From assembly GCA_951799425.1 (NCBI GenBank), contig OX637395.1, positions 578,501-642,500 on the forward strand: a stretch of 64,000 nucleotides of DNA. The letters are read 5' to 3'. This document shows positions 13,386 through 61,100 of the stretch, one piece after another. Numbering within the stretch: the stretch's first letter is position 1; every line of letters begins with the position of its first letter. The notes below the pieces were generated by a model. It was given only the letters and a program-made list of their open reading frames with translations, was not told where the DNA came from and did not search any database. Made by a program: the position numbers and the translations under genes. The DNA comes from Ilex aquifolium. Taxonomy: Eukaryota; Streptophyta; Magnoliopsida; Aquifoliales; Aquifoliaceae.

Positions 13386-15182
13386 ATGAAATTTGAGGTG
13401 GGTATTGGGGGTTTGGGGTGGAATGATGAAGACAAGGCCATGGTTGCGGCAGTTTTGGGCTCTAGGGCTTTAGATTACTTGATTTCGAGCTCGGTTTTAG
13501 CCGAATGCTTGCTAATGGCTATGGGGAATGATGAGAATTTGCAGAATAAGCTATCAGATCTTGTGGACAACCCAAACGCGGTCAATTTTAGTTGGAATTA
13601 TGCGATTTTTTGGCAAATTTCCCGCTCGAAATCCGGTGATTTGGTTCTAGGATGGGGAGATGGGTCTTGTAGAGAACCAAAGGAGGGAGAGGAGACGGAA
13701 GTGACTCGAATACTCAATCTCCGACTCGAAGATGAGACCCAACAGAGGATGAGGAAAAGGGTACTTCATAAACTGCAAACCAAATTTGGGGGATCAGATG
13801 AGGATAGTTTTGCTTTTGGACTAGATAGGGTCACAGATACTGAAATGTTCTTTCTTGCATCGATGTACTTTTCCTTCCCTCGGGGTGAAGGTGGCCCCGG
13901 AAAGTGTTTTGCATCTGGGAAGCATATGTGGCTGTCGGATGCTTTGAAGTCGTCAGCTGATTACTGCGTCAGATCATTTCTGGCAAAGTCTGCTGGTATC
14001 CAAACTATTGTTCTGATCCCAACTGATATTGGAGTTGTTGAATTGGGATCAGTGAGATCCATACCTGAGAGCTTAGATCTGATGCAGTCATTGAGATCAT
14101 CATTTTCAGCGTTTTCACCGCAGATCCGGGCCAAGCCAATGGTAACCTTGCCAGTGATAACCGACAAGAAAGATGGAAATGCAGATTTCTCAAGTCTGGG
14201 TATTTGCGAGCGACCAAACGGAAGTCCAAAGATTTTCGGGCAGAATTTGAACTCTAGTCGTCCCCAATTTAGGGAAAAACTTGCTGTTAGGAAGCCAGAT
14301 GAGAGGTCATCGGAAGTGCACTCAAATGGGAACAGGCTTCCGGTAACAAACACTCGAAATGGTCTTTATGGTTTAAATTGGGCACAGTTCAATAATGGAA
14401 AGAAGGGGGGCGCGGTAGAGATTTACAGTCCTCAGACCCCTTCAAACAATCTACACGAACCCATAAATGGGGTTAGGGATGAATTCCGGCTTAACAATTT
14501 TCTGTCTCAAAGACCAGCACAAATGCAGATTGATTTTACAGGGGCCACTTCAAGGCCTATCATTGCCCTTGGGGTTGAGTCTGAGCATTCAGATGTCGAG
14601 GCTTCATGCAAAGAAGACCGAACAGGCCTGCCCGATGAGAAGAGGCCTCGGAAGCGTGGGCGAAAGCCTGCTAATGGAAGAGAAGAGCCCCTCAATCATG
14701 TGGAGGCAGAGAGGCAGCGGCGAGAAAAGTTGAACCAGCGGTTCTATGCATTGAGAGCTGTTGTGCCAAATATTTCAAAGATGGACAAAGCCTCCCTGTT
14801 GGGAGATGCGATTGCTTACATCACTGATCTTCAGAAGAAGCTCAAGGACATGGAATCAGAGAGGGAAAGGCTCGGATGCACTTCAAAAGATGCATTGGAT
14901 TTGGAAGCTAAATCAAATCTAGAAAGTCAAAGCCATGTTCCAGATATCGAAATTCAAGCTGTTCATGATGAACTTGTAGTAAGAGTAAGCTGCCCTTTGG
15001 ATGCTCATCCCATATCAAGAGTCATCCAAGCTTTCAACGAGGCACAGATCAATATTGTTGAGTCCAAACTTGGTGCAGGGAATGACACAGTGTTTCACAC
15101 ATTTGTCATCAAGTCTCAAGGATCAGAGCAGGTGACGAAGGAAAAGTTGATCGCGGCATTTTCCCGTGAATCCAACTCCTAG
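13386..15182 (+). CDS. MYC-type bHLH transcription factor, AIB/JAM-like
   Basis: This encodes a 598-residue nuclear DNA-binding protein in one exon. The N-terminal bHLH-MYC_N region (about residues 40-230) includes [26 protein letters not shown]-type sequence and the [26 protein letters not shown]-type block. A basic stretch [13 protein letters not shown] precedes the bHLH domain (about 434-485). Its basic region has His438, Glu442 and Arg446, the residues that read the E-box/G-box core. A C-terminal ACT-like region follows (about 515-595). The best family match I recall is ABA-inducible bHLH/JA-associated MYC2-like (bHLH17, bHLH13, bHLH3), which compete with MYC2 and dampen jasmonate responses. 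The start is the ATG at 13386; the frame opens slightly earlier but without an ATG. Four G-boxes lie upstream. Confidence 0.93.
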
Positions 15183-18100
15183 TGGTTATTGTCATCAGTT
15201 GGGTAATCAGACAAATTATATTAACATTAGTTGGTAGGAATAATTTGTAGTGAAGATCCGATTCAAAAGGCTTATGCAAAGGTTTTGATATATATAATAC
15301 AGCAGTGCTGATAGAAGTAGAAAAATAATTTCCTATTGACCAAGTAAGACAGTAAATCTTTGGTTTTTGTTTATAGTACAGGTATTCTGCCACAAGAAAC
15401 TAGTCTAGCAAGATCAATTAAATTTGTAATTTAGCTGGCTGTAGTATTATTGCTTGTTTAGAAATATATATATTCTTCCCTACAATCTCTCTATCATTTC
15501 ATGGATCTTTATCATTCTATTGCTATGTGTATCATTTGATGGATTATTGGAAGGCTTGTGGCATGATTATTGGTGAGCAAATAGCTGTTGGACTCTTTTT
15601 AAGTTTGGTGGTTTCCTTCATCTCTTCTCCGCCAGTGCTATATTCAACGTTGTGCAGCCTACGGCCAGCATAAAATTTTAGGGATCTATTATAATGAGTC
15701 CAAATAATGATACATATGACGAAGACGAATTCATATAGTCGATCTGAAATAATTGGGACATATGATTTGATTTGGTTCATATTTTTGATTCGTTGAAATA
15801 ATGGGAAAATGTGAACACGTTAGTACTATATGCTGTAGCGTGGTAGACTTGCAAGTGAGCATTGAGAATCATGTGGGGTTGAACAAACGCGTTGGAGCCC
15901 ACAGATTCAATAGCTTTTCTTGTGGAATGAACATAATCTCTCTCTTATTCGGTAACAGAGAATCGTTCCGAATTTCTAATCACATTTTTTTTTGGATTCA
16001 TTGTTGTAACACGAATTTTGGATGTATGCGATTGCTATCAAATCGATTGTATCGATAAACTCAAATTTTATGCGGCCACGAAGAGATAAGAGAGAAAGAT
16101 GGTTTTTTTTACTGAACATTATCTTCATCTCCTAACAGGACAGCAAAAAATACAGCCAGTTGCAACTTGCAAGGTAGACGCCAATAGAATTCTATACCAT
16201 ATCTTTCTATTGATACACTTGAAGAAAAAGTGTGGGTAAATGCTGAAACATGTGACCAAACTAGATACCAGAGTGGGTAAATGCTGAAGCATGTGACCAA
16301 ACTAGAGACCACAAGTCTTTAAATGCTTTTGCTTTAGCTTTTGTGCCCATACCTCATTCTACCCTTTCTCAATCACTCATGTTTGGCTTTGTATGTTTTT
16401 TTTTTTCTGTATTTTGAATCTTATTTATTTGTAGTTGAGTAGAAATGAGATAACCACCAGAGTTGGTGCTTTACTGGCAAGTTGTACCCGTTTAGAATCA
16501 TCCTTAATTTCTATGTGATTATAAAGTAGGGTTCAATTCACTAACTTAATTTTGGTGGTACTGTGGTGATAAATTACTCTTCCGAGTTAGTAATTATGGC
16601 TCAAATTGAACATTTTATACTGAGAGACTCATGATTACGCTCGAGGAATGAGTACTTTTTTTATAAAAAAAAAAAGGAATGAGAGGACAACTTGGTGAGG
16701 CATGTGGTGGTGGTGGTAGGTTTGGTACACAAGAGCCAAACCAGAGCATGTGGTGGTCAAAGTCAGAAACTCCATAAAAAAAAAAAAAAAAAAAACAGAG
16801 GGACCCACTTAATAAATGGAGTGAAGAAAATTGAGAACCTACTATTTGCATGATCCTTACAGGAAATTGGTTGGCAACTTAAACGAGGAACATATTCATT
16901 AATTATAATGTCATGCATGTTCCACATGATGGCATTCAATATCTCTTACCATTCTGAGTGCCTTATTTAAAGGAGGAGTGTTCAATAGATTTAAGACTTT
17001 TTCCAAAACTCATCTGAACAGGACCACCAAACCTAACCTGAAAATGGGGTTTGGTAAACACGTCTTCAAGGATCATGAATTAAAAAAGAATATCTTACAA
17101 CAAATGACAAGCACTAAGCAATGAAGCACAATTTTTACTAAAAAAAACCTCTAAAGTTTCAATACTTTTTATAAGTATATTCTGTTTTTAACCTCTAAAG
17201 TTTCAATACACTTATACTTTTTATAAGTGTATTCAATGTTTATGTCAATACACATGCAAATGATGTTCTACTAATTAATATATAATTATTAGTATATATA
17301 TATATATATCTATATATATAACAAGTGGAGCACAACAGATTTAATTCAAATAAGCGGAGTAAGATCCGCTTCTAAACAAATGGCCTATAAGAGGGGAACC
17401 CATGATGGAGATTGAGGTGAGTGAATCAAACGCTAACACAAGAATTTTCTAATTCATAAAATATTCATTTTTGACTTTATCATTGGAGGGTCGTTTTCCG
17501 GAGTCCTTCCGATCTCCAACTTGCCTTTGCAGGTACCCGGGAAGACGGATCTAGCTCTCAAGAACATTTAGAACTTGGTCAACATTTTGAACCATCATCA
17601 CTTACCATATTAGCCCATTTTTATTTTCTCTCGGCTGTTAGTCTCATTTTTTGGACACCCCAGTAGTAGTACCTGTATGAAATACTCGTTGAATACATGC
17701 AAAGATGGAGACCACGTGCTAAAGAACGTAACAAAAGTTGATTGGTCAAAAGTAATAAAAGCAATATAGGAGTCAACACGCATTTGTTTAGAAAATCATC
17801 ACGTAATTGATACTCTACATCAATTTTGTGGGCATCGTAGTAAATTATTACATTGGGGACTCGACTGAAGCCAGAAGGGTCGGTTTGTTGCCACTTCATT
17901 GTCTTAGTTTCCCTGCATCAGACACAATTTTGAGTGCGATTTTGGTCAATCCTACCACTAAGATTATGTACATTTGACTTTTAGTGGATTTCAAAGTGGC
18001 GGTGATTGACTTTTCTTTGTGTGAAAGTATCTCATGATAATTTCTAATGTCTGGTTAACTATGTATGTAATTCATCAAGTCCTTGAAACTATGTTACAAA

Positions 18101-18406
18101 TCAAAAGATCAAGCAACAACACTAGACCTTCAATTCAATTAACAAAGAGAATTGGTGTTCATTCATGACAAAACTTCACAAAAACAGACCACCAGATTCA
18201 AACCCCTTTTTTCTTAACCAGCTTCAAAACACCCTGATACAAGAAATGACAACAGTTAGAATCAGGTTAATCCTCTCATCATTTACAAGTGATTCACAGG
18301 AAATTCCTGTTTGGCGGAATGTCCCTTCCGGGAAACTATTGAATATTGGTCATTATATTCACTAAGGGTAACTTTTCTTACAACAGCAGCAACAAGGATC
18401 AATCAA
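15183..18406. other. Intergenic, small repeats only
   Basis: The first few hundred bases are likely the bHLH 3' UTR. A 41-bp tandem duplication lies at 16232-16313. A (TA)n run lies near 17295-17325. An imperfect repeat of ACCTCTAAAGTTTCAATAC occurs near 17146 and 17190. No gene recognised. Confidence 0.5.
16232..16313 (+). repeat. 41-bp tandem duplication
   Basis: Two adjacent copies of GTGGGTAAATGCTGAARCAT followed by GTGACCAAACTAGAKACCA. They differ at only a few positions. Confidence 0.85.
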
Positions 18407-21400
18407 CTACTCTACATTTCCTTCGACCATGTTAACCTCTGTAGTGGCAGGTACATCACCATTGTCCTCATCCTTGCTCTTCTTAGTGGCATGAACCTTC
18501 CTATTATGGTGACAGTATCTGGAAATGTGCCCCTCCTTGCCACAAGTGTAGCAGAGCTTCTTCATTTCTCTCTTTCTCGGTCCAAGTTTATTTTCGAGCC
18601 TTGCCTCTACCATGTTTGCGTTCTTAGAGGGATTTTCTTTCTTGCAGCGATTGCGAGATTCTTCCTCGACCCTTAGGCGACATATCAACGTTTGAAGAGG
18701 TAGGACCTCCTCGAGCAGCAACTTCGTGCGATAATCCTTCCAAGATGGAGGAAGCTTGGAAATGATAACGCTAACATGAAAATTCTCATCAATGCACATT
18801 CCAGAAGCAATAATAGAATCTGCAATCTTGTGAAGTTCTTGAACCTGCTCAAGAATTGATATCCCATCAACCATCTGAAATTGAATATATTTATTGACTT
18901 GAGATCTTTTTGTTCCAAAATCCTCATCGTAAACTAATTTAAGTTCTTCCCAAAGCTCTCTAGAACTGCAAGTCTTCTTTGAGTATAGATCAAACAGATG
19001 GTCAGATAGAGAGTTCAGGATGTTGTGATGGCAAATGTAGTCATCATCTTTCCACTTTTGAGCAGAAGCTCGGGCTTCAACAATTTCTTCAATGCTCGCT
19101 TCCTGGCTGAGGGAAGTGCTTGGGCATGGCTCAGTGAGCACATATGCAATTTTCAACTGCTTTAGGAAAAATTCTATCTGATGCATCCAACAATGGTAAT
19201 TTCGCCCATTCAGGCGGATGGTCTCAATAGGAACGAGCCTTTGAGGAGAAGCAGCAGTCATTGATGAATTATGTTGATTGTGTCCTTTAAGAGAAAAATC
19301 AGTCGCTGAATCAGACATATCTACTTCAACTTGATTTCTATCAGTGGGTATATTTCCATGAGTAGCAGAATCAGGCATATCTGCATCAGTTTCTTTTCTT
19401 TCAACGGGGAGGAGTCCTTGAGGAGCCAAGCAGTTGACTGCATCAGATATATCTCCCTCAATTGGTTTTCCAACATCTTCGGATCTACAATTTGTTGATT
19501 GGCAGTCCAAGACCAAGTCAATCAATTAGTGGACTACATGCTTTTTAGTTAGTGGGAACAAAGAAATGAAAAGGTTAAACATGTGACTAGTAACCCTACA
19601 TGCATTCAAAGTGCAACACTCTCTACATCACAATTCTCATTTCCCAATATCAGGGAAATGAAATCAGTTCAGGAAGAAGAAAAATCTAACCAACTGCAAT
19701 GGGAACAAAGTAGTCTCACCTTTTTCGTGATTCCATCTTTGCAATGGCTTCATCTATAGCATGTAAACTATTCCTAAAAACTGACCATTGTTTAGCAGTC
19801 AAGCTAATTCCTGAATGTACAGCAGAAGCACAAAGTTATCAGTATCGATAAAACAAGTGCCTCGTAAAATAAAAGAGAAAATCACCCCCTACTTCTGTTT
19901 TAAGTTGTACATGAGGTTTCTCCTTGCTGGCAACAGTTACTGACCCACGAAAAAGCCAATCTCCTTGACTTTGTAGGTAAAGATCTCTATCCTATCATAT
20001 TTCTCTCTTTGCTTCCAGCTTTCTCTCTTCTTTTCTCTCTATGTCCAAAGTCTATCTCTGTAAATCTATGCCAAATGAAAAAGAATGTATCTGACTCCAA
20101 ACACCCCAAAAGGTACTAGAGACACATCTTTGGAAGAAGTCAGAGCAGTTCAATTGTTGGGACTTGGGAGAATGCATCCCTAACCTGAGATCGCCAAAAG
20201 TATCACCAAATCACATTATTGCTGGCTTAATTTTCTTGCAATTATTTTGAATTCAGTCAGTACGTACTTTTAGACTGTTCAGACCACTTCTAGCTCCTGA
20301 TAGGTTAATTCATTTAAAGTCCTTCATCAGACTCGGCAAAAAGTCGATAAATCCCAGGCACTACTTCAGGATCTCAAAAGGTTTACATGGGGGTCAGATG
20401 GGATATTTGGATAGTCACCATAGTGTTAAATCCCAAAAGACCCAAGTTGACATGCAGATTGTTTCTACAAGTACAAAGGTTAAGGAAAATCATTAAGAAA
20501 AGCTGGACTCAACGAAGTTTTAATTTTACATTGCGGATGATCCCTATAAAACTATAAAATCGAGAAAAAGTAGAAATATACACGATGGCAAAACATGATA
20601 GATAATAAAAACGTTAATTATCACCTCTGGCTGTAGGAAACCGTTTTCCATCTTTTTGGTAGTAGTCCCTAATTGACACCAATTTTTGCCCTCTATAGTC
20701 TTGAATTGCCAACATCCTTTTGTTTGATAGCTATGAACAAATAAGACAGCAATGCTTACAATAAGAACACTGAGAGTCATGACTCTAAACATAATTAAAA
20801 ACTCATCGAAAGAGTTGAGCATTCCACACTGCTACTATGACTCTCAAACCAAAAGAGGTATACGCCCAAGGGTTTTTACTTACAAAAATCTCCAGTCTTG
20901 CTCAAAAAAGTATCATGCATCTTGATTGAACATGTTTCTCCACTTCAATGCTCTTAGTGTGCTGTTGTTAGTTGGTTGACTTTAAAATGGAGTCAAATAA
21001 AGTGATAAAATTTCAACTGAATACAAATGCTAATTTTGCCTTCAACAATATAGAGATGCTTACATCAAGAATATTTAATTGCAATTTTTTTCCCAATAAC
21101 CAAACAAAGCACTTGGGTTTTTCTTCCTTTTCTCCCCATGTAACTGCAAATTGCATTTTTTATCTAGAAGTAAACAATAAAACTAATAAATCAGAATTCT
21201 CATGAATAACTTTGATGAGTCCCAACAAGATAACCAAGAAAACCAACTTTCTTGAGCTAAACATAGCTATAAACATAATCAACAGATTACTCAATTCTTT
21301 ATCTTTGCCTTTCTTTAAGTAGATTTGATTTTAGGGTTTAGTCACTTTTGAACTGACCTTGCAAATAACACGGGCATCGTTGTAATAGCCCTCTTTGGAA

Positions 21401-21699
21401 TCACCAACACTAGTTGGTCTGGTCTGCTCCTCCTGTGGCTGTTGTTGTTCTTGTACCACAACCTCGTTGGTCTCTTCTCGGACTTTGTCGCCGTCCTCCG
21501 ATGTTGAAGTTGTCGATAACAAAAAAGACTCGACGACGCGTCGGACAAGCAACTTGTGGTCGAGGTCGGAGAGGTCAACGCAGAGCCTCTGGGCGGCGGT
21601 GGTTCGGACATTGTACTCGGTGGTTGTCTCCAAATCTGCATTTTTCAGGATTTCGAGCACAGTTTCTTCGATTTTCCTCCGTTGGGCGTCTGGTTCCAT
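18407..21699 (-). CDS. DEK_C-PC4 coactivator fused to copia-gag-like/CCHC domain
   Basis: I assembled four exons on the minus strand: 21699-21358, 20730-20625, 19810-19720 and 19484-18407. All introns are GT-AG and the frame closes, giving 538 residues. Exon 1 encodes a DEK_C-like helical domain (about residues 8-65), as in the plant coactivator KELP. Exons 1-3 make a PC4/p15 single-stranded-DNA-binding fold (about 110-178, reading VICKLSNKRMLAIQDYRG, then RGISLTAKQW after the junction). Exon 4 holds a linker with a repeated DSAT motif, a UBN2/copia-gag-like domain starting RLNGRNYHCW (about 270-440), and a CCHC knuckle CX2CX4HX4C at 491-504. PC4-type proteins assist RNA polymerase II. The added part resembles a Ty1/copia capsid and nucleocapsid but no protease or polymerase follows. 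The intact frame and introns argue for a host gene. I recall a CCHC-knuckle KELP relative in Arabidopsis. Confidence 0.85.
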
Positions 21700-22970
21700 T
21701 ATTTCCCGACAGAGAGTGAAGAGGGAGATTTAAGGGTGATTTAGTACGGTTGGAAATTAGTTAAAACAAAACAATCAAACATACTCTCGCTGCTACCATG
21801 GTGGAGGTGTGAACATATGACACCGATGCATTAAGACAAAACTCAAATTTTTATTTAAATTTAAAAAAAAAAAATGTAAAAAATTTGATTCGGTGTAGAC
21901 ATCTTCATTTCAAATTTAAATAAAAAGAAACTTAAATTTAAAAGTGGATAAAATATGACAATTGAATCTTTAAAAGATGATTTAATCTCACCATTAAAAA
22001 TTTATATTTAAAAAAAGGTTTCTTTTCATTTGGTATGAGTATGAGTCTAGCATTTGAGAAATATTTTAAACTATTTTTACTCAAATTTAAATGTGAGTAC
22101 CAAAAAAAAGGGTTAGAGATGCTCTAACACGATACAAAATTAAAAGATTTGAGTCTTTTTTAAATCACATATTTTATAAATAAGTGGATTTAATACGAAA
22201 TAATTAATAAACTAATGAGTTAAGAGTAAAATCAATCAAAAGAAATACATAATAAGACTCGCTTATATATTGATTATACATGATTCATACATAATACAAA
22301 TTCAATATGACACGAATTAATAAACGAATCAAGTATGTGTGAAATATTTTTTAATATCAACCTGTTAAGACATAATAAAAATTCGTCTCACCCACTACGC
22401 TTGACAAACCTACTAATTAGTATATTCTCAGCCCAAAAGTACTAGTTATTGTTGCTTTGAGAAGGAGAGAGAGTCCCTTCCTTCTTCTTCTTTTTTTTTA
22501 ATAAAGCGATGGAGGTAAATGAGAGCACCTAGAAATTATCCCGATAAGCCTTCATTGATGCGATCATGAAGCCCCCAACCGTGCTCATTACTCTTGAGAA
22601 TAAACCTAACTAGGCTAGCATAACAGTCAACCACTGAGCCTTAATATGAACTCCAAGACTCAAGCTTCCAACTTGAAAGTGAGAAATTCGATCGGTACTC
22701 TACTGAACCACCTCACTCAATGGTGAGAGTCCCCACTCGAATATATATATAAAGTACAATACAATTCAAATCTCAAAATATAAACAAAATGATTTTTGCT
22801 TTTCGTGGTTGAAATTTATTTAAATTTTTTACTTCAAAGTTAATCCGACAGCTAATATTAACACTCCAAATTTAATAGAAAAAATAGGTCCCTAAATTTG
22901 TGTTTGGAGTGACTTTATAAAAGTGTCTCTAAAACTTATAATTTCTCATAATTACTTTAAAAAAAAGTAG
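21700..22970. other. Intergenic, no gene seen
   Basis: Promoter side of the DEK_C-PC4 gene, then AT-rich DNA. I see no certain element ends or coding exons. Confidence 0.5.
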
Positions 22971-22982
22971 TGTTTAGAACCA

Positions 22983-23930
22983 TACCCCCCCCCCCCCACC
23001 ACCACCACCATCACCCACTGCCCCACCACCATCACCACTACCGCCAACCCACCACCATTGCCACCGTCACCCCACCACCATTACCACAACAACCATCGTC
23101 CCACTACCACTACCACTATTGTCGCCACCTCACTACCTCCACCCCCACTGCCCCACAAACCACCACCGTTGCCACCATCCTACCCCCATCACCATCACCA
23201 CCTTACCCCCATCATCCTTACCACCTTCACCGTTGCCGCCACCCCTACTACCATCACCACTACCACCACCACCTCCACTTTCACCTTACCACAACAACAA
23301 CAACCACCATCGTTGTCGCTACCCTACCACCGTCGCCACTGTCCTACCATCACCTTCACCACCCCCCACTGCCCCACCCCCCACTACCACTACCACCACC
23401 ATCACTACCACCCCACCATCGTCGCCACCCCCCACCACCATCGTCACTGCCCCACTATCATCCCTACTGCCCCCCACCACCAATTGCTACCATCATCGTC
23501 CATCGCTACCACCTACCACCATCGTTATCTCATTCTTATATTTATTACAACTACTACCATCATTTCACTACCACGTCGCCCACTTTCAGCACCTACCACA
23601 ACTCACTACCATGACCCACCACCATCCTTTGTCATCTACCATCGTCACTAGCCATTGTCACCCACCACCACCACTGTCGTCACCCCCACCACTATTACCA
23701 TCGTCACCATCACCCATCACCACTTACACCCATCACCACCACCATCATCACTCATGGCTACCACTACCACCATCGTCACCCAAAATTCACAACCATCACC
23801 GCTGTCACCCACGACCGCCACTACCACCACGGTCGTCACCACTTATCATAACTATTATCGTCTCCTACCACCTCCACTGTCGCCCACCACCACTACCACT
23901 GCTCACTCCCACTACAACCGGTGTTTAAAT
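22983..23930. repeat. C/A-rich (CCACCAT)-type minisatellite tract
   Basis: About 950 bp made almost wholly of CCA, CAC, CAT and ACC words, with almost no G on the plus strand. All three plus frames stay open for hundreds of codons because the composition hardly ever makes TAA, TAG or TGA. The predicted His/Pro/Thr/Ser proteins are therefore not credible genes. No unit repeats exactly over long distances, so this is a decayed simple repeat. Confidence 0.85.
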
Positions 23931-24009
23931 TTTGTCCTATCTTCTCTATGTTTGTGATTTGATTTTGAGTGTAAATACAAATATGTTTATTACTGACCAT
24001 ATTTCTTAT

Positions 24010-24042
24010 TACTTCGTGCTTTTAGGCACGGAAAATAACTAG
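24010..24042 (+). mobile_element. Helitron-like 3' terminus (first)
   Basis: A hairpin CGTGC-loop-GCACG (24015-24030) is followed eight bases later by CTAG (24039-24042). A short hairpin then CTRR is the 3' mark of Helitrons. The next base is C, not the usual T, and I see no matching 5' end. Confidence 0.45.
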
Positions 24043-24414
24043 CATATAATAAGATAACTCACAAGTTAAATTTTATCCCCTACACATTTTTCTCCCAAAA
24101 AATATCATATCACCTATTTCTATCACATGTCTAATTATTTTAATATTTGATTAATTTGTAGTTTAATATGTTTTTTATTTCAAAATTATTCATACACAAT
24201 AGTATACATATATTGAGAAAATTTTATAGGATTACGTATTTTGAAAAAAAATTGTCGATTTTTTTAAGAAAATAATGGATAAACATAGATTTTAAATAAT
24301 GTAATCAAAGAAATGAAAGGAATAAAAATTATTATTTAATATGGTGGGATTGATTTTTTTGTGCGCTCGAATTTTATGTTTCATCGTGTCTTCAGATATG
24401 AGTTATGATTAGTA

Positions 24415-24596
24415 TCTATAATCTATAATATAAAAACAGGACATGTTTCAATAAGCCCATCTAACGGTCTTAAATATATTCATTCAACAACCACTATCAT
24501 CTCTCTCAAAATCATTCACATTGAATTTTTTCCTCCCCCAAATCTATTACTTCTCACTTACGTTGTATTGTGCCTTTAGGTACGAGTTATCCCTAA
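24415..24596 (+). mobile_element. Short non-autonomous Helitron
   Basis: It starts TCTATAATCTATAATATAAAA after an A and ends CTAA before a T, matching the Helitron rule A-[TC...CTRR]-T. A small hairpin GTGCCT-TT-AGGTAC lies about ten bases before the end. The element is 182 bp and carries no gene. The preceding bases (about 24388-24413) look like a second, decayed copy of the same 3' end, so two elements may be joined head to tail. Confidence 0.55.
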
Positions 24597-25034
24597 TATA
24601 TATATATTCGAGGGCAACTGAATTCGTGAATTAATATTATTAATGACCATGAAGTGGGCCTGTATTGAGGCGATTGGTCCTTGGAGGATTCTATCATAAT
24701 CTGAAGCCTAATAAGCAACTATTCTAACCTACTTGGGCTTATGGGCCGTACAGAGTACCACAAAGCATACAAAATGTTCACTTAATGGTCCAGACCATGG
24801 TATGGCCCCCTCATTTAATGCAACGATGAAGTTTTTCTATTATGAGCCAATCAAGTATCAACCAAACCCTTGCTATGTGCAAATAAAACCTAATGTGTTT
24901 GATCCTTTCCTAGCATTGAAGAGAGAATTGTGACCTGAACTACTTCTATTGTATTATTAATGATGTCAGAGAAGAAATCAGGTAACAAAAAAAAAAGTGT
25001 CACAAGGAAAGTTTAACGAGTTGCAAGAGGTTTA
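24597..25034. other. Intergenic, no gene seen
   Basis: A short open frame at 24733-24933 has no recognisable domain. Nothing else supported. Confidence 0.5.
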
Positions 25035-25485
25035 TTACTTCAAAGGATATTTTTACAGTTGTTACATCCAAAAAAAAATTTGGTATCATACCTCCAAAAT
25101 TTACTATTTCAAAAGATATTTTTATAATTTTTGTGGGTCATTTTACAATCAAAATATTTACCACTTTTGTGGTTGATTTACCACTTTTATGGGTGTTTTT
25201 ATCACTATTATGAGTATTTTTACTACATTTGTGGTAACTATTTTTACTATATTTCTTAGGTACAAAAAAATTATCACTTTTATGGGTGATTTACTACATT
25301 TGTAGGTGTTTTTATAACATTTCTGCATGTTTTTACCACTGTTATGATAAATATTTTTACTATTTTTTTGGGTACCACAATAATAGTAAAACTACCCACA
25401 AATGTGATAAAAATTATCAAAAATGTAATAAATGAAGGTATGGTACCGAATTTTGTTTTAGATGTACCGTAGTCTACTCCAATTA
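25035..25485. mobile_element. Mutator-like foldback MITE
   Basis: An 11-bp direct repeat CAAGAGGTTTA flanks the unit (25024-25034 and 25486-25496), a length typical of Mutator-like target duplications. Inside, imperfect inverted repeats (25062-25094 and 25434-25469, around GGTATCATACCTCC and its inverse) bracket degenerate TTTTTACCACTTTTATGGGTG-like tandem units. No transposase. Confidence 0.5.
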
Positions 25486-25496
25486 CAAGAGGTTTA

Positions 25497-26022
25497 CACG
25501 AGTACCACCCACACACCTACGTCTCTTCCCCTTTTTTTTTTTAACGACGGTTAAGATTGTTCAGATTAATTTATGCGTATTTTAATTAATTTTTTCTCCA
25601 ATTCAGTTAAAGAAAATTACAAAAATTTAAACTAATCATATCTAATCATCTCTATTATCACTTTAACTGGCCCTATTTCTCTTCCCTCGTGTACTGTTTG
25701 CTTTTGACTTAAGCAACCCATTTCCAATTCCAATCAATAAGATCATGGAAAATCAATGCTTTTCCAGGCAAACAGCTGTGACATTATTGGTAAAGAACTT
25801 TTCCTGGCAGTAAAAAAATTTACGAATTACGATAACATCAACCTCAATAATATTACTCCTAACAATTAAAGACATGGTGAGCCTTTTGATTCCTTTTGGA
25901 CACAGAGCTCAAGTTCCAAGTGAGATATCTGTCGCTGTGAAGGATTAAATGACACAATTAATACAAATCCATCCAACTTCTACCACTAACAATAAACAAA
26001 CTGCAGATTTGTCCCCAATTAT
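25497..26022. other. Intergenic, no gene seen
   Basis: AT-rich, with no coding or repeat structure I can name. Confidence 0.5.
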
Positions 26023-26351
26023 TACAACTGTTAGTTAAACTGAGTTATTCGAGCTTGATTTGGGTATGACTCGTTCGGACTCGTTTCGTTTTCTAAACGA
26101 ACCCAAACTTAAACAAGTTTTTAGGCTTGTTTATAAAAAAATCCCTACAAGTTCGACTCAAACTCGATAGACTCGACTCGTTTATGTGCAAATACTAGGG
26201 TTTGATTCGGACTTGACTTGTTTTGGGCTGGTTCAGGGTCGACTCGTTTCCTAAACGAGTCAAACTTAAACAATTTTTTAGCCTCGATTAAAAAATAAAT
26301 TTTTCAAACTTGACTCGAACTCGACTCAGACTCGTTTGACTAACACCCATA
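26023..26351. repeat. Dispersed hAT-like MITE relative
   Basis: The ends contain inverted GTTAGTYAAAC...GAGT words. The interior shares AACGAG...AACTTAAACAA..TTTTTAG.CT motifs with the element at 2043-2323. No clean target duplication was found. Confidence 0.4.
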
Positions 26352-27067
26352 GCAACACTACTGCCCCTTTCCCCACTCTACAGAGACAAAACCAAAAATA
26401 TGAGAAAGAGAAAGCAATTCAACTTCCTTTTTACTCCAGCTTTTTTCAACCGCTTTTAGTTTAATTCGTCATTTTTTAATTATCTATTTGATCCTTAAAT
26501 TATATTATTTATGTCAATCAAATTTTCGAACTACGTTTTATGTTAATTTAGTACCTAAATTATAATATTTATGCCAATGTGACCCTCTCGTCCAAATTCG
26601 TCGCTAAGTTTGACAAAAATTTTCATGTGCACAACACGTTACCTCTAAATTATACCCAAATCCCTCCCGACTCATATAATGCGCATGTGAAAAATTCTAT
26701 CAAAATTAACCTCGAATTTAGATGGAATGGTCATATCGGCACAAATGATATAATTTAAAAATTAAATTGACACAAAGCATAGTTCAAAACTTGATTGATC
26801 TAAATAGATAGTTCAATTCATTTATTACAATTTTAATGTGAAACTTATTAATTTTTTTATTTTTAAGTATAATATCAAATAAAAATAGGGAAACATAGTT
26901 TACAAGAAACAAAATGTAATAGTTAACTTTTGTAGATGGATAGTGTAATTAATAAATATCTCAGCCAAACCGCATTTCGAACACCCTCTCTTGTCCCTGT
27001 GACTTCTCCATTATTTATACTCCCATAGCTCTTCCCACTGACAGTCCCAAAGCTCTCTCTCAATCAA
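26352..27067. other. Upstream region of aspartic protease gene
   Basis: AT-rich with no gene. It ends in the promoter of the protease gene (TATA-like sequence at 27012-27019). Confidence 0.5.
27012..27019 (+). promoter_or_regulatory. Likely TATA box of aspartic protease gene
   Basis: TATTTATA lies 49 bases before the ATG at 27068. With a start site about 30 bases downstream, the leader would be only about 20-25 nt. Confidence 0.5.
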
Positions 27068-28534
27068 ATGGAAGGAAAAGCCATTCCCTTCCTCTTTTCC
27101 TTTATCTTCCTTTCTCTCTCTGTCACTTTCGCCGGAGAGTTACATTACCAAACCCTAGTCCTAAGCCCTCTCCCCAAACCACAGTCACTTCCAATATGGA
27201 CCCAAGACTCCCAAACCCTTTCCGTACTGGAACCAGAACAAACCACCACCGAATCTTACTCAGAAACCACCGTTTCCTTACAGTTACACCACATAGACTC
27301 TCTCTCCTCCTCCTCCTCCAAGTTCAACATCACCCCGGAGGCCCTCTTCAACCTCAGACTCCAACGCGACTCCGTCAGAGTCAAAACCTTGACGTCCCTC
27401 GTCGCCGTTAAAACCAAACCCACAGGCACTCACGTGCGCGCACGTGGCAGCAGAGACTTCAGCAGTTCCATAATCTCAGGGCTCGCGCAAGGCAGCGGTG
27501 AGTACTTCACGCGCTTGGGCATAGGCACTCCTGCTAGAAACGTTTACATGGTCTTGGACACCGGAAGCGACGTCGTTTGGATCCAGTGCAGGCCGTGCCG
27601 GAAATGCTACAAACAGTCCGACCCGGTCTTCGACCCAACCAAATCCTCATCCTTCGTCGGACTCTCATGTGGGTCCCCTCTATGTCGCCGTCTTGACTCC
27701 CCTGGCTGTAGCAACCGTCGGAGGTGTGTTTACCAAGTGTCCTACGGTGATGGGTCTTTCACTTCCGGTGAATTTTCCACTGAAACACTCACTTTTCAAA
27801 GAATCAGAGTAAAAAATGTTGCAATCGGATGTGGGCATGACAATGAAGGCCTTTTCATCGGAGCTGCTGGGTTATTGGGTCTCGGCCGTGGAGGATTATC
27901 TTTTCCGAGACAGAGCGGTCGCCGATTTGGCCGGAAATTTTCTTACTGTTTGGTTGACCGATCGGCTTCGTCCAAACCGTCTTGGATAATATTCGGCAAC
28001 TCTTCTGTTTCAAGAAACTCCATTTTCACTCCTTTACTTGCTAATCCGAAAGTCGACACGTTTTACTACGTGGGCCTCACCGGAATTTCTGTCGGAGGTG
28101 TTCGTGTTGCTGGCATTAAGGCTTCAATGTTCAAGCTTGACGCCACTGGAAACGGTGGTGTGATCATTGATTCAGGTACGTCGGTGACCCGGTTAACCCA
28201 ACCCGCTTATGTTGCACTGAGGGATGCTTTTCGGATGGGAGCATCCAATTTAAAGCGGGGACCCGAGTTTTCACTGTTCGACACTTGCTTTGATTTGTCC
28301 GGCAAAACGGTGGTGAAAGTTCCGACGGTGGTATTGCATTTTGTGGGTGCTGACGTGTCTTTGCCGGCGTCGAATTATCTTATTCCTGTGGATAGTTCGG
28401 GGAGATTTTGTTTTGCATTTGCGGGTACGATGAGCGGGTTGTCCATAATTGGGAATATCCAACAACAAGGGTTCCGGGTTGTGTATGATTTAGCGGGTTC
28501 AAGGGTCGGGTTTTCTTCACGTGGGTGTGCTTGA
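27068..28534 (+). CDS. Nepenthesin-type aspartic protease (A1 family)
   Basis: This is an intronless gene for a 488-residue secreted or cell-wall pepsin-like protease. The hydrophobic N-terminus (residues 5-22) looks like a signal peptide. A propeptide runs to about residue 140. The first catalytic motif is in VLDTGSDVVWIQC (DTG about residues 164-166). The Cys-rich insert CRPCRKCYKQ and the following Cys residues are typical of plant nepenthesin-like enzymes. The flap region reads YQVSYGDGSFTSGEF. The second catalytic motif is IIDSGTSVTRL (DSG about 368-370). The closest plant group I recall is APF2/ASPG-like proteases. Both catalytic Asp residues and the C-terminal IIGNIQQQGFRVVYD block are present, so it should be active. 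Confidence 0.95.
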   Translation: MEGKAIPFLFSFIFLSLSVTFAGELHYQTLVLSPLPKPQSLPIWTQDSQTLSVLEPEQTTTESYSETTVSLQLHHIDSLSSSSSKFNITPEALFNLRLQRDSVRVKTLTSLVAVKTKPTGTHVRARGSRDFSSSIISGLAQGSGEYFTRLGIGTPARNVYMVLDTGSDVVWIQCRPCRKCYKQSDPVFDPTKSSSFVGLSCGSPLCRRLDSPGCSNRRRCVYQVSYGDGSFTSGEFSTETLTFQRIRVKNVAIGCGHDNEGLFIGAAGLLGLGRGGLSFPRQSGRRFGRKFSYCLVDRSASSKPSWIIFGNSSVSRNSIFTPLLANPKVDTFYYVGLTGISVGGVRVAGIKASMFKLDATGNGGVIIDSGTSVTRLTQPAYVALRDAFRMGASNLKRGPEFSLFDTCFDLSGKTVVKVPTVVLHFVGADVSLPASNYLIPVDSSGRFCFAFAGTMSGLSIIGNIQQQGFRVVYDLAGSRVGFSSRGCA

Positions 28535-30257: not shown

Positions 30258-31548
30258 TGTGACGACCCGTATATAAAATAATCATTAACAAATTAATTAG
30301 GTCGTCAATTATGATTCTATATAACTAAGGGTTATTTTAAAAACAAAATTTAAATAAATAAATGGACTATTTATGTGAAAACGAGTCAAATAACTATAAC
30401 TTAGGTCAAATATCGTAATCATATAATAAATGAATATATTCATATCTATATATACTTATGTGAAAGATCCTAGCTAAATCTACAAGATTTGAGCTAGCAA
30501 GATTTGGAAACGTGCAAGAGAAAAAAAATAAATATAACATGGACAAGTGTCCATGAGTTGCTTGGGGACCAAGCATTTCTTGGCTATAAATAGCCAAGCT
30601 CAGTTGCTTGAACGGCATAGCAGGAGAAGAAAAAGAGAGAAGGAGAGAGAGGAAGGGAAAGAGAGAAAAAGAAAGAAATTTATGAGATCTTGGGGTCAAA
30701 AATTGAGCAGTGATTTTATTTTAGATCGTTATCAAAATTAACTATTTCATTCGCGTTATTTCGAATTTCGCATCTATTCAAGTCATTCATGGATTTGAGG
30801 TACGGGGTAGTATACAATATGCTCCTGTCTTTTAAATCTCTTTGCAAAGAGTGTCATTTCATTATCTGAAATTTGTATTCCTATTGATTATTCTGATTGA
30901 TTTGAAATTCTGTCAATATTATCGGTTGACCTGTACGTTGGGCTAAATACTTTGGGATTGATTGGTACATGTACGAAGTGAACTTGGGGGCATAATTGGT
31001 GAAATGTGATTATGGCCCTGCGGGGTGCGATTGTGATTACAGCCCTGAGGGGTGTAATGGTTCGATATGAGTACGGATTTTAAATGCCCAAGTGTCACTT
31101 GTCATGTTACCAAGAGAACCCTAGTATGAGGTCATGTTTGATAGAAATTGAGCTATGTGACTTATCGAATTGGATTCTTGATTCTTTTATCTATGATTGT
31201 CTATCAGTTGAATTATTTGGTATTTGATCATTTATATTCTTTACTCGTTGAGCATATTGTTTCCTGTCATATTGTATACTTCCCCGCCTTTAATATTTTT
31301 TTCAGGATTATCTCGGAGGGAAGGACCAGAGTTGATGTTTAAGGAATCGAAGACAGACGAATCTTGATATAATTTTTAACTTTGTATATTGAGGAGATTA
31401 TTTTTATTATTTGGAGATAAAAATGGAGATTATAAATTTATTGAGTCAGTTAGAGCTCTGGCCCTGTATTCGGAGTTTTATTTGTGGTTTATTATTGTGA
31501 TCGATCAATTGAATCAAGTAACGGATCCGGGGAAATCGGGGCGTTACA
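30258..31548. repeat. 5' LTR of the non-autonomous element
   Basis: A 1291-bp terminal repeat with TG...CA ends. It contains a TATAAATA box at 30584-30591 set inside an inverted repeat (30580-30597), then a purine-rich stretch. It is repeated almost exactly at 31837-33127. Confidence 0.92.
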
Positions 31549-31836
31549 AAGTGGTATCAGAGCCTAGGTATCAGATCTTATATGGGTCTTGTGGGAAGTG
31601 AGACTATCATCTTTCGCTGTAGGTGTAGAAGTTGAAGTGTGCGAAGTAAGTCAACCAATTTTCATTAGGCGGATGTATAAATTGGAATTCATATCAAAAA
31701 TTTTGGGTTATATGGTAAAAAGTTGAAAAAGGTATCAGAGTGCGCAGCGGATATTTGTGTAATATATTCATACTTATTTTCCTCTTGAGGTTAGTACCGA
31801 ATTTCGGGGACGAAATTATTTTTAAGGGGGGTAGAT

Positions 31837-33127
31837 TGTGACGACCCGTATATAAAATAATCATTAACAAATTAATTAGGTCGTCAATTATGATTCTATA
31901 TAACTAAGGGTTATTTTAAAAACAAAATTTAAATAAATAAATGGACTATTTATGTGAAAACGAGTCAAATAACTATAACTTAGGTCAAATATCGTAATCA
32001 TATAATAAATGAATATATTCATATCTATATATACTTATGTGAAAGATCCTAGCTAAATCTACAAGATTTGAGCTAGCAAGATTTGGAAACGTGCAAGAGA
32101 AAAAAAATAAATATAACATGGACAAGTGTCCATGAGTTGCTTGGGGACCAAGCATTTCTTGGCTATAAATAGCCAAGCTCAGTTGCTTGAACGGCATAGC
32201 AGGAGAAGAAAAAGAGAGAAGGAGAGAGAGGAAGGGAAAGAGAGAAAAAGAAAGAAATTTATGAGATCTTGGGGTCAAAAATTGAGCAGTGATTTTATTT
32301 TAGATCGTTATCAAAATTAACTATTTCATTCGCGTTATTTCGAATTTCGCATCTATTCAAGTCATTCATGGATTTGAGGTACGGGGTAGTATACAATATG
32401 CTCCTGTCTTTTAAATCTCTTTGCAAAGAGTGTCATTTCATTATCTGAAATTTGTATTCCTATTGATTATTCTGATTGATTTGAAATTCTGTCAATATTA
32501 TCGGTTGACCTGTACGTTGGGCTAAATACTTTGGGATTGATTGGTACATGTACGAAGTGAACTTGGGGGCATAATTGGTGAAATGTGATTATGGCCCTGC
32601 GGGGTGCGATTGTGATTACAGCCCTGAGGGGTGTAATGGTTCGATATGAGTACGGATTTTAAATGCCCAAATGTCACTTGTCATGTTACCAAGAGAACCC
32701 TAGTATGAGGTCATGTTTGATAGAAATTGAGCTATGTGACTTATCGAATTGGATTCTTGATTCTTTTATCTATGATTGTCTATCAGTTGAATTATTTGGT
32801 ATTTGATCATTTATATTCTTTACTCGTTGAGCATATTGTTTCCTGTCATATTGTATACTTCCCCGCCTTTAATATTTTTTTCAGGATTATCTCGGAGGGA
32901 AGGACCAGAGTTGATGTTTAAGGAATCGAAGACAGACGAATCTTGATATAATTTTTAACTTTGTATATTGAGGAGATTATTTTTATTATTTGGAGATAAA
33001 AATGGAGATTATAAATTTATTGAGTCAGTTAGAGCTCTGGCCCTGTATTCGGAGTTTTATTTGTGGTTTATTATTGTGATCGATCAATTGAATCAAGTAA
33101 CGGATCCGGGGAAATCGGGGCGTTACA
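31837..33127. repeat. 3' LTR of the non-autonomous element
   Basis: A 1291-bp copy of the upstream repeat, the same length and nearly identical. It is followed directly by the AGGTT target duplication. Confidence 0.92.
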
Positions 33128-34064: not shown

Positions 34065-37000
34065 CATAGTTATCAAATTGTGTATCGAAAGGCGTATCAT
34101 TTTTTAAAATAGTGTATCGTATTCATATCGTGTATCGTAAGATACGGTGCAATTTTAAATAAATAATAAAAAAATATATATACCTTTGAAAAAAAATCGT
34201 ACACTCATAAAAACATAACATTTCATTAATACTCCACCAACTATTCAAGTCATCAACATAGTTCACTAATATTATAATGCAAAGTTCACAACCATAGTTC
34301 ACTAATATAAACTTCAAACACCAAAGAGACATCTAATTCAAATTTCTAACATTCATTTTGAACTCAATCTTCAATTTCAATTGAAAATGCATCATCATCA
34401 TCATCATCATTGTGATCGGATGCCAACAAATCTTCACTTCCTTCATCATCTTCAACTTCTTGTATTTGTTCATCCTCATCTTCATCTTCAAGTTGAACTA
34501 TTTGCTTCCCTTTTTTTCTTGTTTAAAGAAAGATGTCTAGGCCCTACAAAACAACCAATACAAAATATAAAAAAATATATTCAAAGTAATGGAGAAGAAG
34601 AAAAAACAACCACTACATTTTAATTATATACTATTTACCTCTCTTTATTTTTTTGCTAGTCTTTTCTTGAACCTCAAAACATTCATCCAAGTAGTGTCGT
34701 TAGGAATGAGTGCATCTTTTTTTTCAGTGATCCACTCATCATCAGTTTCCATATCTGAGAGAGAAATAGGATCATAGGAATCACCCTCTAGTATTCTCTT
34801 TTGGTGTCTTGCCTTCAATCGAAGATTGTACTTCACAAACACAAGTGCACTTAATCTTTACTGCTCTAATCGATTCCTCCTCTTAGAGTGCACCTGGTCA
34901 AATGTACTCCAATTCCTCTCACATTCTGTGGCACTACAAGTCAAGCTAAGGATGCGGATAGCAAGTTGTTGCAACTCTGGACAACATCCTCCAAATGATT
35001 CCCACCATAAGGTTATAAAAAATTACAATAGAATACTGCATTAACTAACTTAAGCAATTGCATTAAATGACTAACTTAAGTTAGGTTATCATTAATCTGG
35101 TTGTTTCTTCTTCCTCATATGGATTGTCATGTCCATTTTAAACATCAAATCAGCATTGTGAAAGATATCTAATTGTTTATCAACTTTTTCTCTCACAATA
35201 GGACTTGGGCACATTCTCTGAATAGTCTGATAAAGTTCCATCTTTATCTCATAGTCCGCACTACCGTTAAAGTAATGAAACCTGAAATAGTTATTTTGAT
35301 TTACAATGATTATTGATCAGTATACAATATATAGATATAAAATGATATAAAAATTGAGAAACTTAAATCTTACGTTGGATTGAGATAATAGGCAGCTGCA
35401 TGAAGAGGTATGTGTAATTGCATGTTCCATTTAATGTCAACAATAGTCCATATAGACTTATAGTGCTTCTTCACATTATGAAAATTCTTTTGGATTTGTT
35501 CTTTTGGCTTGCCCATTGCCTCATAAATATACCCCATGGCAGGCTTTATATCCCCATCTACAAGCCTCAACACTTTCACCAATGGCAACACACACTTCAA
35601 GCAATACTTGATTGATCCCCAAAAATTTTGATCAGCTAGTATAATATCTATCATTTTTACACCATCTCCCTTCTTAGAGTATTGACTTCTTTGCCATTCT
35701 TCAAAAGCAAACATTGCTCTAAGCCCAATTTTATTCTCAAATAAACTCCTTAAAGTTAAATAAGAGGTGGCAAATCTAGTCACACAAGCTCTCACCAAAT
35801 CCCTTTTCTTTGTATACTTCCTCATAAGATTTAACACCCATGAATGTCTATAAATGTAAACTGTGATTTTCCTTGCCTTTGTCATTATATCCTTGTGTAG
35901 AGGAAGGTCTCCAATATCCGTCAAAATAAGATCTAGACAATGTGCAGCGCAAGGAGACCAAAACAAATTTTTCCTCTTTGCCATTAACAACTCCCCAGCT
36001 TTTGCATAAGCCGATGCACTATCAGTCACAACCTGAACAACATTGTCCTCACCAATCTCTTCTACCATTGAATCTAAAAGCTGAAAAAGATTATCCGCAT
36101 TCTTACAAATGCCTGAAATATCAATACTTTTAAGAAACACACTTCTTCTAGGACTATTCACTAAAAAATTAGTGATAGAGCGATATTTCACATCAGTCCA
36201 TCCATCAGACATAAGAGTATAACCCGTCTTTCTCCACTCTGCTTTATAATTTTCCATCAACCCACCATTAATCAAATATGTTTATTTTTTCAAAAAAGAA
36301 CATCTCACCTCATGATACGATGGAGGTTTCAATCCCTTGCCAAACGATGCAATAGATTCTAACATTCTTACAAAATATGGATCCTTTACCAAATTAAAAG
36401 GAATGACATTAGCATAAAAACCTCTACAAATATCCAAGCATACATCTTCCCTACCATTTTTCTTCAACATGGTATTCAAAGTAATAGTGGTGGTTGGTTG
36501 TATTTTATCAACAGTAGTACTACCCACACTGCCACTACTTTTCGAATCCACAAGACTCGTATCTTTGCTAGAAGCCCTATCATCCAACAATTGCTTAAAA
36601 AATTCAGTTACTTCCTCAGGGCAATGCTTACATGACGCTACATCTTTACGATTACCTGTCAAATGATTTTTCATTCTTGAAATGCCTCCCCAATAGACAT
36701 TTGCACAATGAATGCATTTCAATTTCAACCTTGATCCTTCTACTTTGTCACAATGTTCCCATGTGGGATCATTAGCAAGCTTTTTAGTCATTTCTATATG
36801 AAAATAGGATGCTGGTGATGCCACTGTTTCACAAAATTAAAATTAATCAAGATTCAGAAAAAAAAAAAAAAAACAGCTGCAGCTTTGTAAATAAATTAGG
36901 GACCAAATAAATTATCAAATAAATAGTTTTGTAAATAAATTAGGGACCAAAAAGGCAGCTGCAACTTTGTAATAATTCACAAAAAAAAAATTATTTGGCT

Positions 37001-58143: not shown

Positions 58144-61100
58144 TTAGATTGCAACCAAACAGCCCTGGCAACAGATACAAGCAACTACAACGCCAAGCAG
58201 AGCTCCAGCAAGGACCTGGGATGGAGTGTGGCCAAGAAGTTCTTTGAGTTTTCTTTGACTGATAGGATGCCCTTGAAACAAGTCCTCAACTATCATATTC
58301 AGAACCTGAGTTGATCAACACAAAACAATCAGTAAAATTTCGAGAGACGGTAGTACCCACGAAAATCAACAAAGTAAACAAAACAGTTCACCATGCATAC
58401 TTTCACATAGTGGTTCAAATAGGAACTGGTAACTGGGAACCCAAGCAAGAGAACTTCAAAGTAACACATTAGCATGGGGTCACAGAAAAGACTGGTTTAA
58501 AAGACCCAACATATGAAGCAGAAGTGTTGTAAACTTCAGCTGCATGGGCCATACGCCTTGAAATATGTTGCATCAGGCAGGTAAGGCATCCATTGGTACG
58601 CTACCCCTATTCGTTTTTTCTCTCCAAAACTTACCTTCGCCTAACAAATTTCCATCAGCTTCAAATTTGCTCCCAATTTTAGTAGTTGAAAGTTGAAACT
58701 CTTTTTGTTCAGCTACAAAAATAATTCTAGAAATATCCAGCCAAATACTTGAGATCGCAAGCAAGAGAAGTTCCAGGTAACAGCATGAGATTGCAGGAAG
58801 GACTGGTTTACAAGACCAAGAGAGGAAACAAGGGTGTACACTTGAGCTGCATGGACCTTATGCCCTGAAATATGTTGCATCAGGCAAGTAAAGTATTCAA
58901 TGTCCTACTAAATGTCTAGGGTATGTCAAGAGTATCACAGTGCATGCCAAAGTACCTTAGGATACTGCCCTATTCATTTATTTTTCCCTTAAATCTTTGC
59001 CTTCACCTAATAAATTTCCATCAATTTCAAATTTTCCCCCTTTTGGCAGTTGAAAGTTGAAACTCTTTTTGCATGGCCTTGTGAAACACCACTCATGCAA
59101 ACACCTGAACTTTCAACAGAGCCTTAGGTTTCCAAATAAATTAGTGTTAGCATTCATCAAGTATGCTGACATAAATAGTCTGGAAATGAGTTAAAGCTCT
59201 TCCAGTTAAACCTCATATTGTCCCCGTGTTCAGAACTATTACCTTTCTCAAGCAAAGTTGTCCAATCAAAATCTTCTAAATTGCTCCTAAAACTTGAAAT
59301 CTAAGGAAGCACAATCACTATCAAACGCTAGTAAGATAGTGCTTTTTGTAACCTACGATGCACAATCTGTAAATGGTAATCTTTGCCATCAAAGTTCTAA
59401 ATGTTACATATCAACTTTTCCAAAAATCAATCACTAAGACATGTATCAAACACTATGAAACGTTAAGGCCAGTAAGTTTCATATTGCCTAGAACAAAAAT
59501 GAAACATGGAGACTTGGAAGTTTTCATATTGAATATCATGTTTTACAATAGAAAACTCGATTCTAAAGACATTGTTTTAACAATTATGTTCCACTAATTA
59601 ACTAAAACCCTGGAATCACATTCAAAATTAGTTTATTTCATCCTAATCAAATCCTTGAAATGATCGTGGCCACCAAACCATATTCCACATGTACATAAAA
59701 CATTAAGTGCTCATATAAATTACGCAGGCACTATCCTAACTTCAATTTCAACTGAAAAAACACGCACCACCTCCAAAACCCCCTACCCTCCATCTTCCAG
59801 TACAAACAGAGAAAAAATCTGATCTATTGTATGCTCTGATGGTCATCTAGTGTTCATATTATTACCTCCTAATGTTCCAATCCAAGACCCAACTCAAAAA
59901 AACAACTTCTCTAAACAAAAAAATGATAGGAACTGACCAAAGAAATCAAATGTCAAGCCATCTAATCACCAAAAATGGTTGGAATTTCGAAGATGTAAGT
60001 ACCCAACAGAGTGACAAGCAAAGAAGAGTATAAATTCATCGATCTCTTGCCCTGAATCTCAAATATATTGTCTGTCAATTGTCCATGGTCTAACATTCCC
60101 TATCAACCATAGGATTTCCACTAGACTTCAATAGGCAATCAAGCTCAAAAGTCTAACTGACCAACCAAAACAACAATCTTGGAGGTCTTCAAGTTGAAGC
60201 CAAGCTCATCATTCCACTAAAATAAGTTGTTAACCACAACATCAGTAATTTCTGCATGATAAAAAATGCATTCTTGTTAAGCATGAATCCTATAATAAAC
60301 TCTGCCCATCAACAGTAATTCTTCCACCCCTCCAGAGGTGTGTGTTCCAGTGTTTGTGCATTTGCGAATATACAAATTATATATAATTATTTGAAAGCAG
60401 TACTAATCCCTAAAACTAAACAGTTGCAGTAGTAAAAAATTATCCTCTAACAAACGCCATCAACCGTTGTAAAGTGATAAGTGTGTCTGTACAGGTGACA
60501 ATACAAACATATAGACTACAAGTATAGGTACAAACATATAGACTCCAGGTAGATATTTATCTAATATTACAACTAGCAATTTGTATCGTATTGTACATTT
60601 ATAAAAGCACAATAACGGTTTTTCTCAGCCTATTATAATTTTAAATTATGTAATTAAAGAAAAAAGGAAAATAAAGTGATATTTCAAACATAAATGTTGC
60701 ACGACTAATGTTTGATTTTTGATATTGTAGAGTGTTTTCAAGGACAGTGTTATTGCTAGTACAAACATATAGACTTTAGCTAATCGAAAAACACTGCCTC
60801 TTTAACAAATGTAACAACATGGTTACATAAAAACAAAAATTACCTCAGCTTGCATACCAGCATGCCTTCGAACCCCTATAGCATCGTACATTACAATCAA
60901 GCTAAACCCCAAACACACAGGAAATAACGAGTCCGCCACTCCATGACATATAGCCACTGAAGTAGTCAGAGCAGTACATAAGGCCGAATGCGATGAAGGC
61001 ATTCCTCCACAAGCAAACATAATCCTCAAGTCCCATTTTCGCTCCACAATAAAATTCAAGAATACCTTCATCGATTGCGCTACAATCCAAGCAAACAAAC

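What the first reader, a model, noticed from the sequence alone, without database searches (positions are those of the whole stretch)
18407..21699. Transcription coactivator fused to a retrotransposon capsid-type domain and zinc knuckle
The exons at 21699-21358, 20730-20625, 19810-19720 and 19484-18407 join through GT-AG sites into one 538-residue frame: DEK_C, PC4/p15, copia-gag-like (UBN2) and CCHC knuckle. DEK_C + PC4 is the plan of plant KELP. The added half resembles the part of Ty1/copia Gag that assembles capsids and binds nucleic acid. No protease, integrase or LTRs flank it, and the split PC4 domain joins correctly across introns, so this looks like a captured and kept host gene. A coactivator that binds single-stranded DNA plus a capsid-like domain could multimerise, package RNA, or restrain copia elements.
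Basis: partly seen in the sequence, partly recalled or inferred. Interest (0 to 1): 0.75.

Follow-up and report, generated by a model that had tools for sequence, protein, structure and literature searches.

The report
Plant coactivator fused to retrotransposon Gag
A plant gene joins a coactivator that is expected to bind single-stranded DNA to the capsid-forming part of a retrotransposon; the gene structure looks real, but this fusion has already been described in many plant families, and what it does is still unknown.

Summary
The four exons (minus strand, 21699-18407) join through GT-AG sites into one 538-residue frame. Pfam finds DEK_C, PC4, copia-type gag (Retrotran_gag_2, 2.8e-19) and a CCHC knuckle just under its cut-off. 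The last half also matches the Drosophila Copia capsid protein in the PDB (8.3e-6). I found no LTR pair around the gene and no pol domain in the 10 of 49 flanking ORFs scanned.

It is not new. Kirov et al. 2022 (PMC9784723; passages and two sections read) describe the same four-domain protein as sunflower HadGAG2, from Nanopore cDNA, with homologues in 24 plant families. They equate it with Ctrg10, the GAG-KELP fusion of Wang and Han 2021, a paper not held here and not read. This locus is best read as another orthologue.

The only detail I add is at the joint: intron 3 lies just behind the PC4 domain and its donor overlaps an in-frame stop, so unspliced RNA would encode a 180-residue KELP-like protein alone. 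Function is untested: a self-associating nucleic-acid-binding factor, possibly antiviral, is the likeliest reading. No orthologue, own-genome data or transcript could be examined.

The parts
21358..21699 (-). exon 1: start codon, DEK_C (residues 7-60; 21520-21681), acidic linker, first two residues of the PC4 match
20731..21357 (-). intron 1 (627 bases, GT-AG, phase 0)
20625..20730 (-). exon 2: larger part of the PC4 domain
19811..20624 (-). intron 2 (814 bases, GT-AG, phase 1)
19720..19810 (-). exon 3: end of the PC4 domain and the short tail behind it (to residue 180, codon split)
19485..19719 (-). intron 3 (235 bases, GT-AG, phase 2), the joint between the KELP-like half and the gag half; an in-frame TGA starts at intron base 2, so retention ends the protein at residue 180
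18407..19484 (-). exon 4: acidic linker, gag, knuckle and stop, one uninterrupted frame
18647..19108 (-). copia-type gag domain (Retrotran_gag_2, residues 306-459); matches the PDB Copia VLP protein
18512..18553 (-). CCHC zinc knuckle C-x2-C-x4-H-x4-C (residues 491-504)

Best explanation
A host gene of a plant: an orthologue of the already published GAG-KELP fusion (HadGAG2 in sunflower, equated there with Ctrg10). Shown here: a KELP-like DEK_C + PC4 half in three exons and, behind a phase-2 intron, a single exon with copia-type capsid and nucleocapsid parts, no protease domain, and no LTR pair found around the gene. Inferred: a copia gag came to lie downstream of a KELP gene copy and was taken in as a last exon through a splice donor right behind the PC4 domain. 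Inferred mechanism, most likely: the PC4 part binds single-stranded nucleic acid and dimerises, the gag part adds self-association and the knuckle adds RNA binding, so that the protein acts as a multimeric nucleic-acid-binding factor. Since over-expressed KELP itself is reported to relocate a tobamovirus movement protein and restrict the virus, an antiviral (or anti-retroelement) role is the best guess, as earlier authors proposed for the fusion. Unspliced RNA at intron 3 would give the KELP-like half alone.
For: Intact spliced frame and four domains; match to the Drosophila Copia capsid protein along chain residues 46-260; PC4 matches to human PC4/p15 and MoSub1; no LTR pair found around the gene and no pol domain in 10 of 49 flanking ORFs; same set of domains, multi-exon gene without LTRs, cDNA evidence and 24-family spread in print (PMC9784723); KELP restricts tobamovirus movement when over-expressed (review passage PMC11861069; the primary paper was not held); Copia Gag needs RNA and its knuckle to assemble (PMC11835246 section 9); intron-3 retention product.
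Against: The knuckle misses Pfam's curated cut-off in all three scans that held it. The exon-4 structure prediction failed (mean pLDDT 36.6), so assembly competence is not shown. The antiviral role is borrowed from KELP and from other authors' suggestion. The primary co-option paper was not read.
Confidence: 0.88

Rival explanations
1. Two neighbouring units: a KELP gene ending at residue 180 (stop TGA overlapping the intron-3 donor) and a separate copia gag relic or gene starting at an ATG inside exon 4.
For: Retaining intron 3 ends the frame at residue 180, directly behind the PC4 domain, and exon 4 has its first in-frame Met at residue 216, before the gag domain.
Against: The donor GTGAG and the acceptor TTGTAG join the frames exactly; a GTGA donor in phase 2 always makes such a stop; the joined set of domains is published from sunflower cDNA and many plant families.
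Confidence: 0.06
2. A recent insertion of a copia element or TR-GAG element into a KELP gene, with no retained function.
For: The gag half sits in one exon behind a single intron; a young LTR element lies elsewhere in the window.
Against: No LTR pair found around the gene; no same-strand 20-mer shared between 14000-18406 and 21700-27400; no pol domain in the 10 of 49 flanking ORFs scanned; frame intact; the same set of domains is widespread in print.
Confidence: 0.03
3. A functional fusion whose main role is to restrain copia elements by co-assembling with their Gag, as for the restriction factor that Ty1 makes from its own gag (PMC7055915, start of abstract in the listing).
For: Gag half intact and of copia type; a Copia Gag variant lacking the knuckle still co-assembles with intact Copia Gag (PMC11835246).
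Against: No direct evidence; the fused DEK_C and PC4 point to a nucleic-acid role of their own; the host's copia Gags could not be compared.
Confidence: 0.1

Closest known systems
HadGAG2 (Helianthus annuus), Kirov et al. 2022, PMC9784723
   Same: Same four Pfam domains (DEK_C, PC4, copia-type gag, CCHC), gag fused to KELP, several exons, no LTRs
   Different: Different genome record (the window's species is not known). Sequence identity and exon positions could not be compared because the plant sequences are not held here
Ctrg10, Wang and Han 2021 (Mol Biol Evol, msab101; not held, known only through PMC9784723)
   Same: Co-opted gag fused to the coactivator KELP
   Different: No comparison made; paper not read
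KELP / AT4G10920 (called AtNMDM2 in PMC9039731; that AT4G10920 is KELP is recalled)
   Same: Annotated transcriptional coactivator (passages); its DEK_C + PC4 plan is recalled, not tested here
   Different: Plain KELP has no gag or knuckle (recalled); here a further exon with 358 whole codons of gag half follows
Drosophila Copia Gag capsid (PDB 8vvw and others; PMC11835246)
   Same: Sequence match of residues 322-519 to chain 46-260, with capsid and CCHC parts in the same order
   Different: Here no protease domain is attached, the N-terminus carries DEK_C and PC4, and assembly is untested

Membership tests
Published GAG-KELP fusion (HadGAG2/Ctrg10) | PF08766, PF02229, PF14223 and PF00098 in one protein | tested here: met
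   three above Pfam cut-offs, zf-CCHC at 18.1 against 20.8 bits but with a complete CCHC pattern
Published GAG-KELP fusion (HadGAG2/Ctrg10) | Multi-exon gene without flanking LTRs | tested here: met
   exon structure inferred from sequence, and strongly diverged LTRs could be missed
Published GAG-KELP fusion (HadGAG2/Ctrg10) | Sequence orthology and purifying selection | not testable with these tools
   No plant relatives obtained; own-genome search unanswered
KELP (plant DEK_C + PC4 coactivator) | DEK_C followed by PC4 | tested here: met
KELP (plant DEK_C + PC4 coactivator) | Single-stranded DNA binding and coactivation | not testable with these tools
   Only sequence similarity to human PC4/p15 and MoSub1
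Ty1/copia Gag | Copia-type gag domain followed by a CCHC knuckle | tested here: met
   knuckle below the Pfam cut-off, pattern complete
Ty1/copia Gag | Assembly into RNA-containing capsids | not testable with these tools
   Structure prediction uninformative
LTR retrotransposon or TR-GAG element | Two LTRs bracketing the gag gene | tested here: not met
   None of the 7 repeat pairs listed has 18407-21699 between its arms; 0 same-strand 20-mers shared by 14000-18406 and 21700-27400
LTR retrotransposon or TR-GAG element | Protease, integrase or reverse transcriptase with the gag or nearby | tested here: inconclusive
   None in the protein itself (no D-T/S-G motif), none in 10 of 49 flanking ORFs of 50 codons or more, none of retroviral type in 10 of 38 longer ORFs of the window; the other ORFs and short or broken remnants were not scanned

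The most novel reading that the evidence does not exclude
One gene makes two proteins by choice at intron 3: a KELP-like coactivator alone when the intron is kept, and a KELP-capsid fusion when it is spliced; the fusion then forms RNA-containing, capsid-like assemblies that trap or carry RNA or viral movement proteins, a plant counterpart of animal Arc or PNMA.
Probability: 0.07. Interest if true: 0.75.

Novelty: already known. Interest (0 to 1): 0.2.

Why it matters
The locus adds one more genome to a known plant gag co-option. The open question, whether plants use a retrotransposon capsid domain fused to a coactivator and for what, is testable, since by PMC9784723 homologues occur in 24 plant families and the sunflower gene gives cDNA. 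If the fusion assembles and binds RNA it would be a plant parallel to animal Arc, but nothing here shows that.

Tried and rejected
The spliced protein was not handed to the predictor, because I read its rule as admitting only sequences that the window gives letter for letter.

Relatives in the viral and prokaryote collections: none (one scan each), as expected for a plant gene; this says nothing about plants. The genome search on the window's own assembly did not complete, so copy number, a separate KELP gene and the host's copia Gags are unknown.

Papers: Wang and Han 2021 and Sasaki et al. 2009 are not held. A search for HadGAG, Ctrg1*, KELP-GAG, GAG-KELP or msab101 found 14 papers, 13 listed; by the counts shown only PMC9784723 uses the HadGAG name; the other Ctrg1* hits look unrelated by title, and the other papers that cite msab101 were not opened. 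Searches listed no other title or abstract start that names this fusion;'s 6,438 papers only 10 were listed, and most listed papers were not opened.

I considered that the stop overlapping the intron-3 donor proves a two-product gene, and rejected that: a GTGA donor in phase 2 always creates such a stop. Base composition by domain led nowhere. No TATA-like site was found close to the start codon (the three found lie at 22006-22269), and polyadenylation-like hexamers lie at 18359 and 18163; I rest nothing on them.

Full report
Observation. Pfam finds, in order, DEK_C (7-60, 3.9e-9), PC4 (113-163, 2.7e-16), Retrotran_gag_2 (306-459, 2.8e-19) and zf-CCHC (490-504, 0.0028, below its curated cut-off). 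The PC4 match crosses two introns, which no unspliced frame would give. The knuckle has the full C-x2-C-x4-H-x4-C pattern at 491-504. Against solved structures the N-terminal half matches PC4/p15 (1.9e-8) and MoSub1 (1.1e-6), and the C-terminal half matches the Drosophila Copia VLP protein 8vvw (8.3e-6 with the whole protein, 1.7e-5 with exon 4 alone; residues 322-519 on chain 46-260); HIV nucleocapsid knuckles match more weakly (0.016 and 0.0042). The exon-4 frame of 372 codons is longer than any stop-free run in 300 Markov-simulated 64-kb sequences, whose maximum was 228; but a low-complexity tract in this window is open for 316 codons, so the domain matches, not the length, carry the case.

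Surroundings. The window reads as plant nuclear DNA by gene content (inference): Pfam names CAS/CSE1 (exportin-like), a bHLH-MYC factor, a TAXi-type aspartyl protease, a BED/DUF659 pair, a Sina-type protein, a LEA_2 protein and a PI3/PI4-kinase with ubiquitin domains among 10 of the 38 ORFs of 110 codons or more; 2 of those 10 had no match. No repeat pair brackets the gene: one search lists 7 pairs of 60 bases or more in the whole window, none with the gene between its arms; one search lists 8 direct families and 2 inverted pairs in 14000-26000, of which one 47-base pair, 72% alike, has an arm in intron 3 and the other at 24283 and looks like chance; one search finds no same-strand 20-mer shared by 14000-18406 and 21700-27400, and no run of nine or more A or T in 18000-19599. 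In 10 of the 49 flanking ORFs of 50 codons or more there was no gag-pol domain; the two rows returned, at E 0.058 and 0.085, fell far below their cut-offs and look like chance. Outside the gene itself no piece of the window resembles the protein better than E 0.64.

Joint. The coactivator half ends with exon 3, and the gag half is in exon 4. The intron-3 donor AAG|GTGAG contains an in-frame TGA starting at its second base, so retention gives a 180-residue DEK_C + PC4 protein with no gag. This fits an origin in which a donor arose at the end of a KELP copy and spliced into a downstream gag, but GTGA donors in phase 2 always behave so, and it is no proof. No AATAAA, AATGAA or ATTAAA lies in intron 3. 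By charge the protein alternates: acidic 1-105 (pI 4.5), basic 106-180 (10.3), acidic linker 181-265 (4.4), gag 266-460 (5.5), basic tail 461-538 (9.2), which suits two nucleic-acid-binding parts separated by a linker.

Comparison with what is known. Kirov et al. 2022 (PMC9784723; outline, passages, and sections 2.6 and 3 read) describe HadGAG2 of sunflower from Nanopore cDNA. Its homologues have PF14223, PF08766, PF02229 and PF00098, occur in 24 plant families, and differ in the number of knuckles (one, two, five or six). [quoted passage not shown] I could not read Wang and Han. The present protein meets every part of that description that could be tested, with one knuckle. So the finding is real but already known.

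Function. Nothing here tests it. KELP is reported to interact in vitro with the movement protein of tomato mosaic virus and, when over-expressed, to restrict the virus's intercellular movement and relocate that protein (passage in review PMC11861069). AT4G10920, which I recall to be Arabidopsis KELP, is called AtNMDM2 in PMC9039731 and interacts there with AtNMDM1, a protein with a PC4-like region, also in pollen nuclei (passages). Copia Gag assembles only with RNA, and deleting its knuckle region inhibits assembly (PMC11835246, section 9). The likeliest reading by inference is a self-associating nucleic-acid-binding factor, perhaps antiviral. Restraint of copia elements and RNA-carrying particles remain open.

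Limits. No transcript, orthologue, selection test or own-genome search was possible (eight genome-search runs unanswered: 3, 14, 22, 37, 46, 53, 55, 58); no relatives were found in the viral and prokaryote collections, and the structure model was unusable.

Noticed in passing
30258-33127: A young LTR element with only 288 bases between its LTRs: two 1291-base LTRs differing at 1 position, matching 5-base flanks AGGTT on both sides, a TGGTATCAGAGC primer-binding-like site at 31552-31563 and a purine-rich stretch before the second LTR. The near-identity suggests a recent insertion; it is unrelated to the finding.
   Followed up: partly
35370-36836: Two adjoining minus-strand frames with a BED zinc finger and DUF659, the make-up of hAT-type transposase genes (family recalled; domains).
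   Followed up: partly
22961-23928: A CCA/CAT-rich low-complexity tract that leaves three long overlapping plus-strand frames open; probably not coding.
   Followed up: no
25150-25375: A 113-base tandem pair, about 78% alike, upstream of the gene.
   Followed up: no
58434-59071: Two diverged direct-repeat pairs (77% and 81%) about 320-360 bases apart, suggesting an old local duplication.
   Followed up: no
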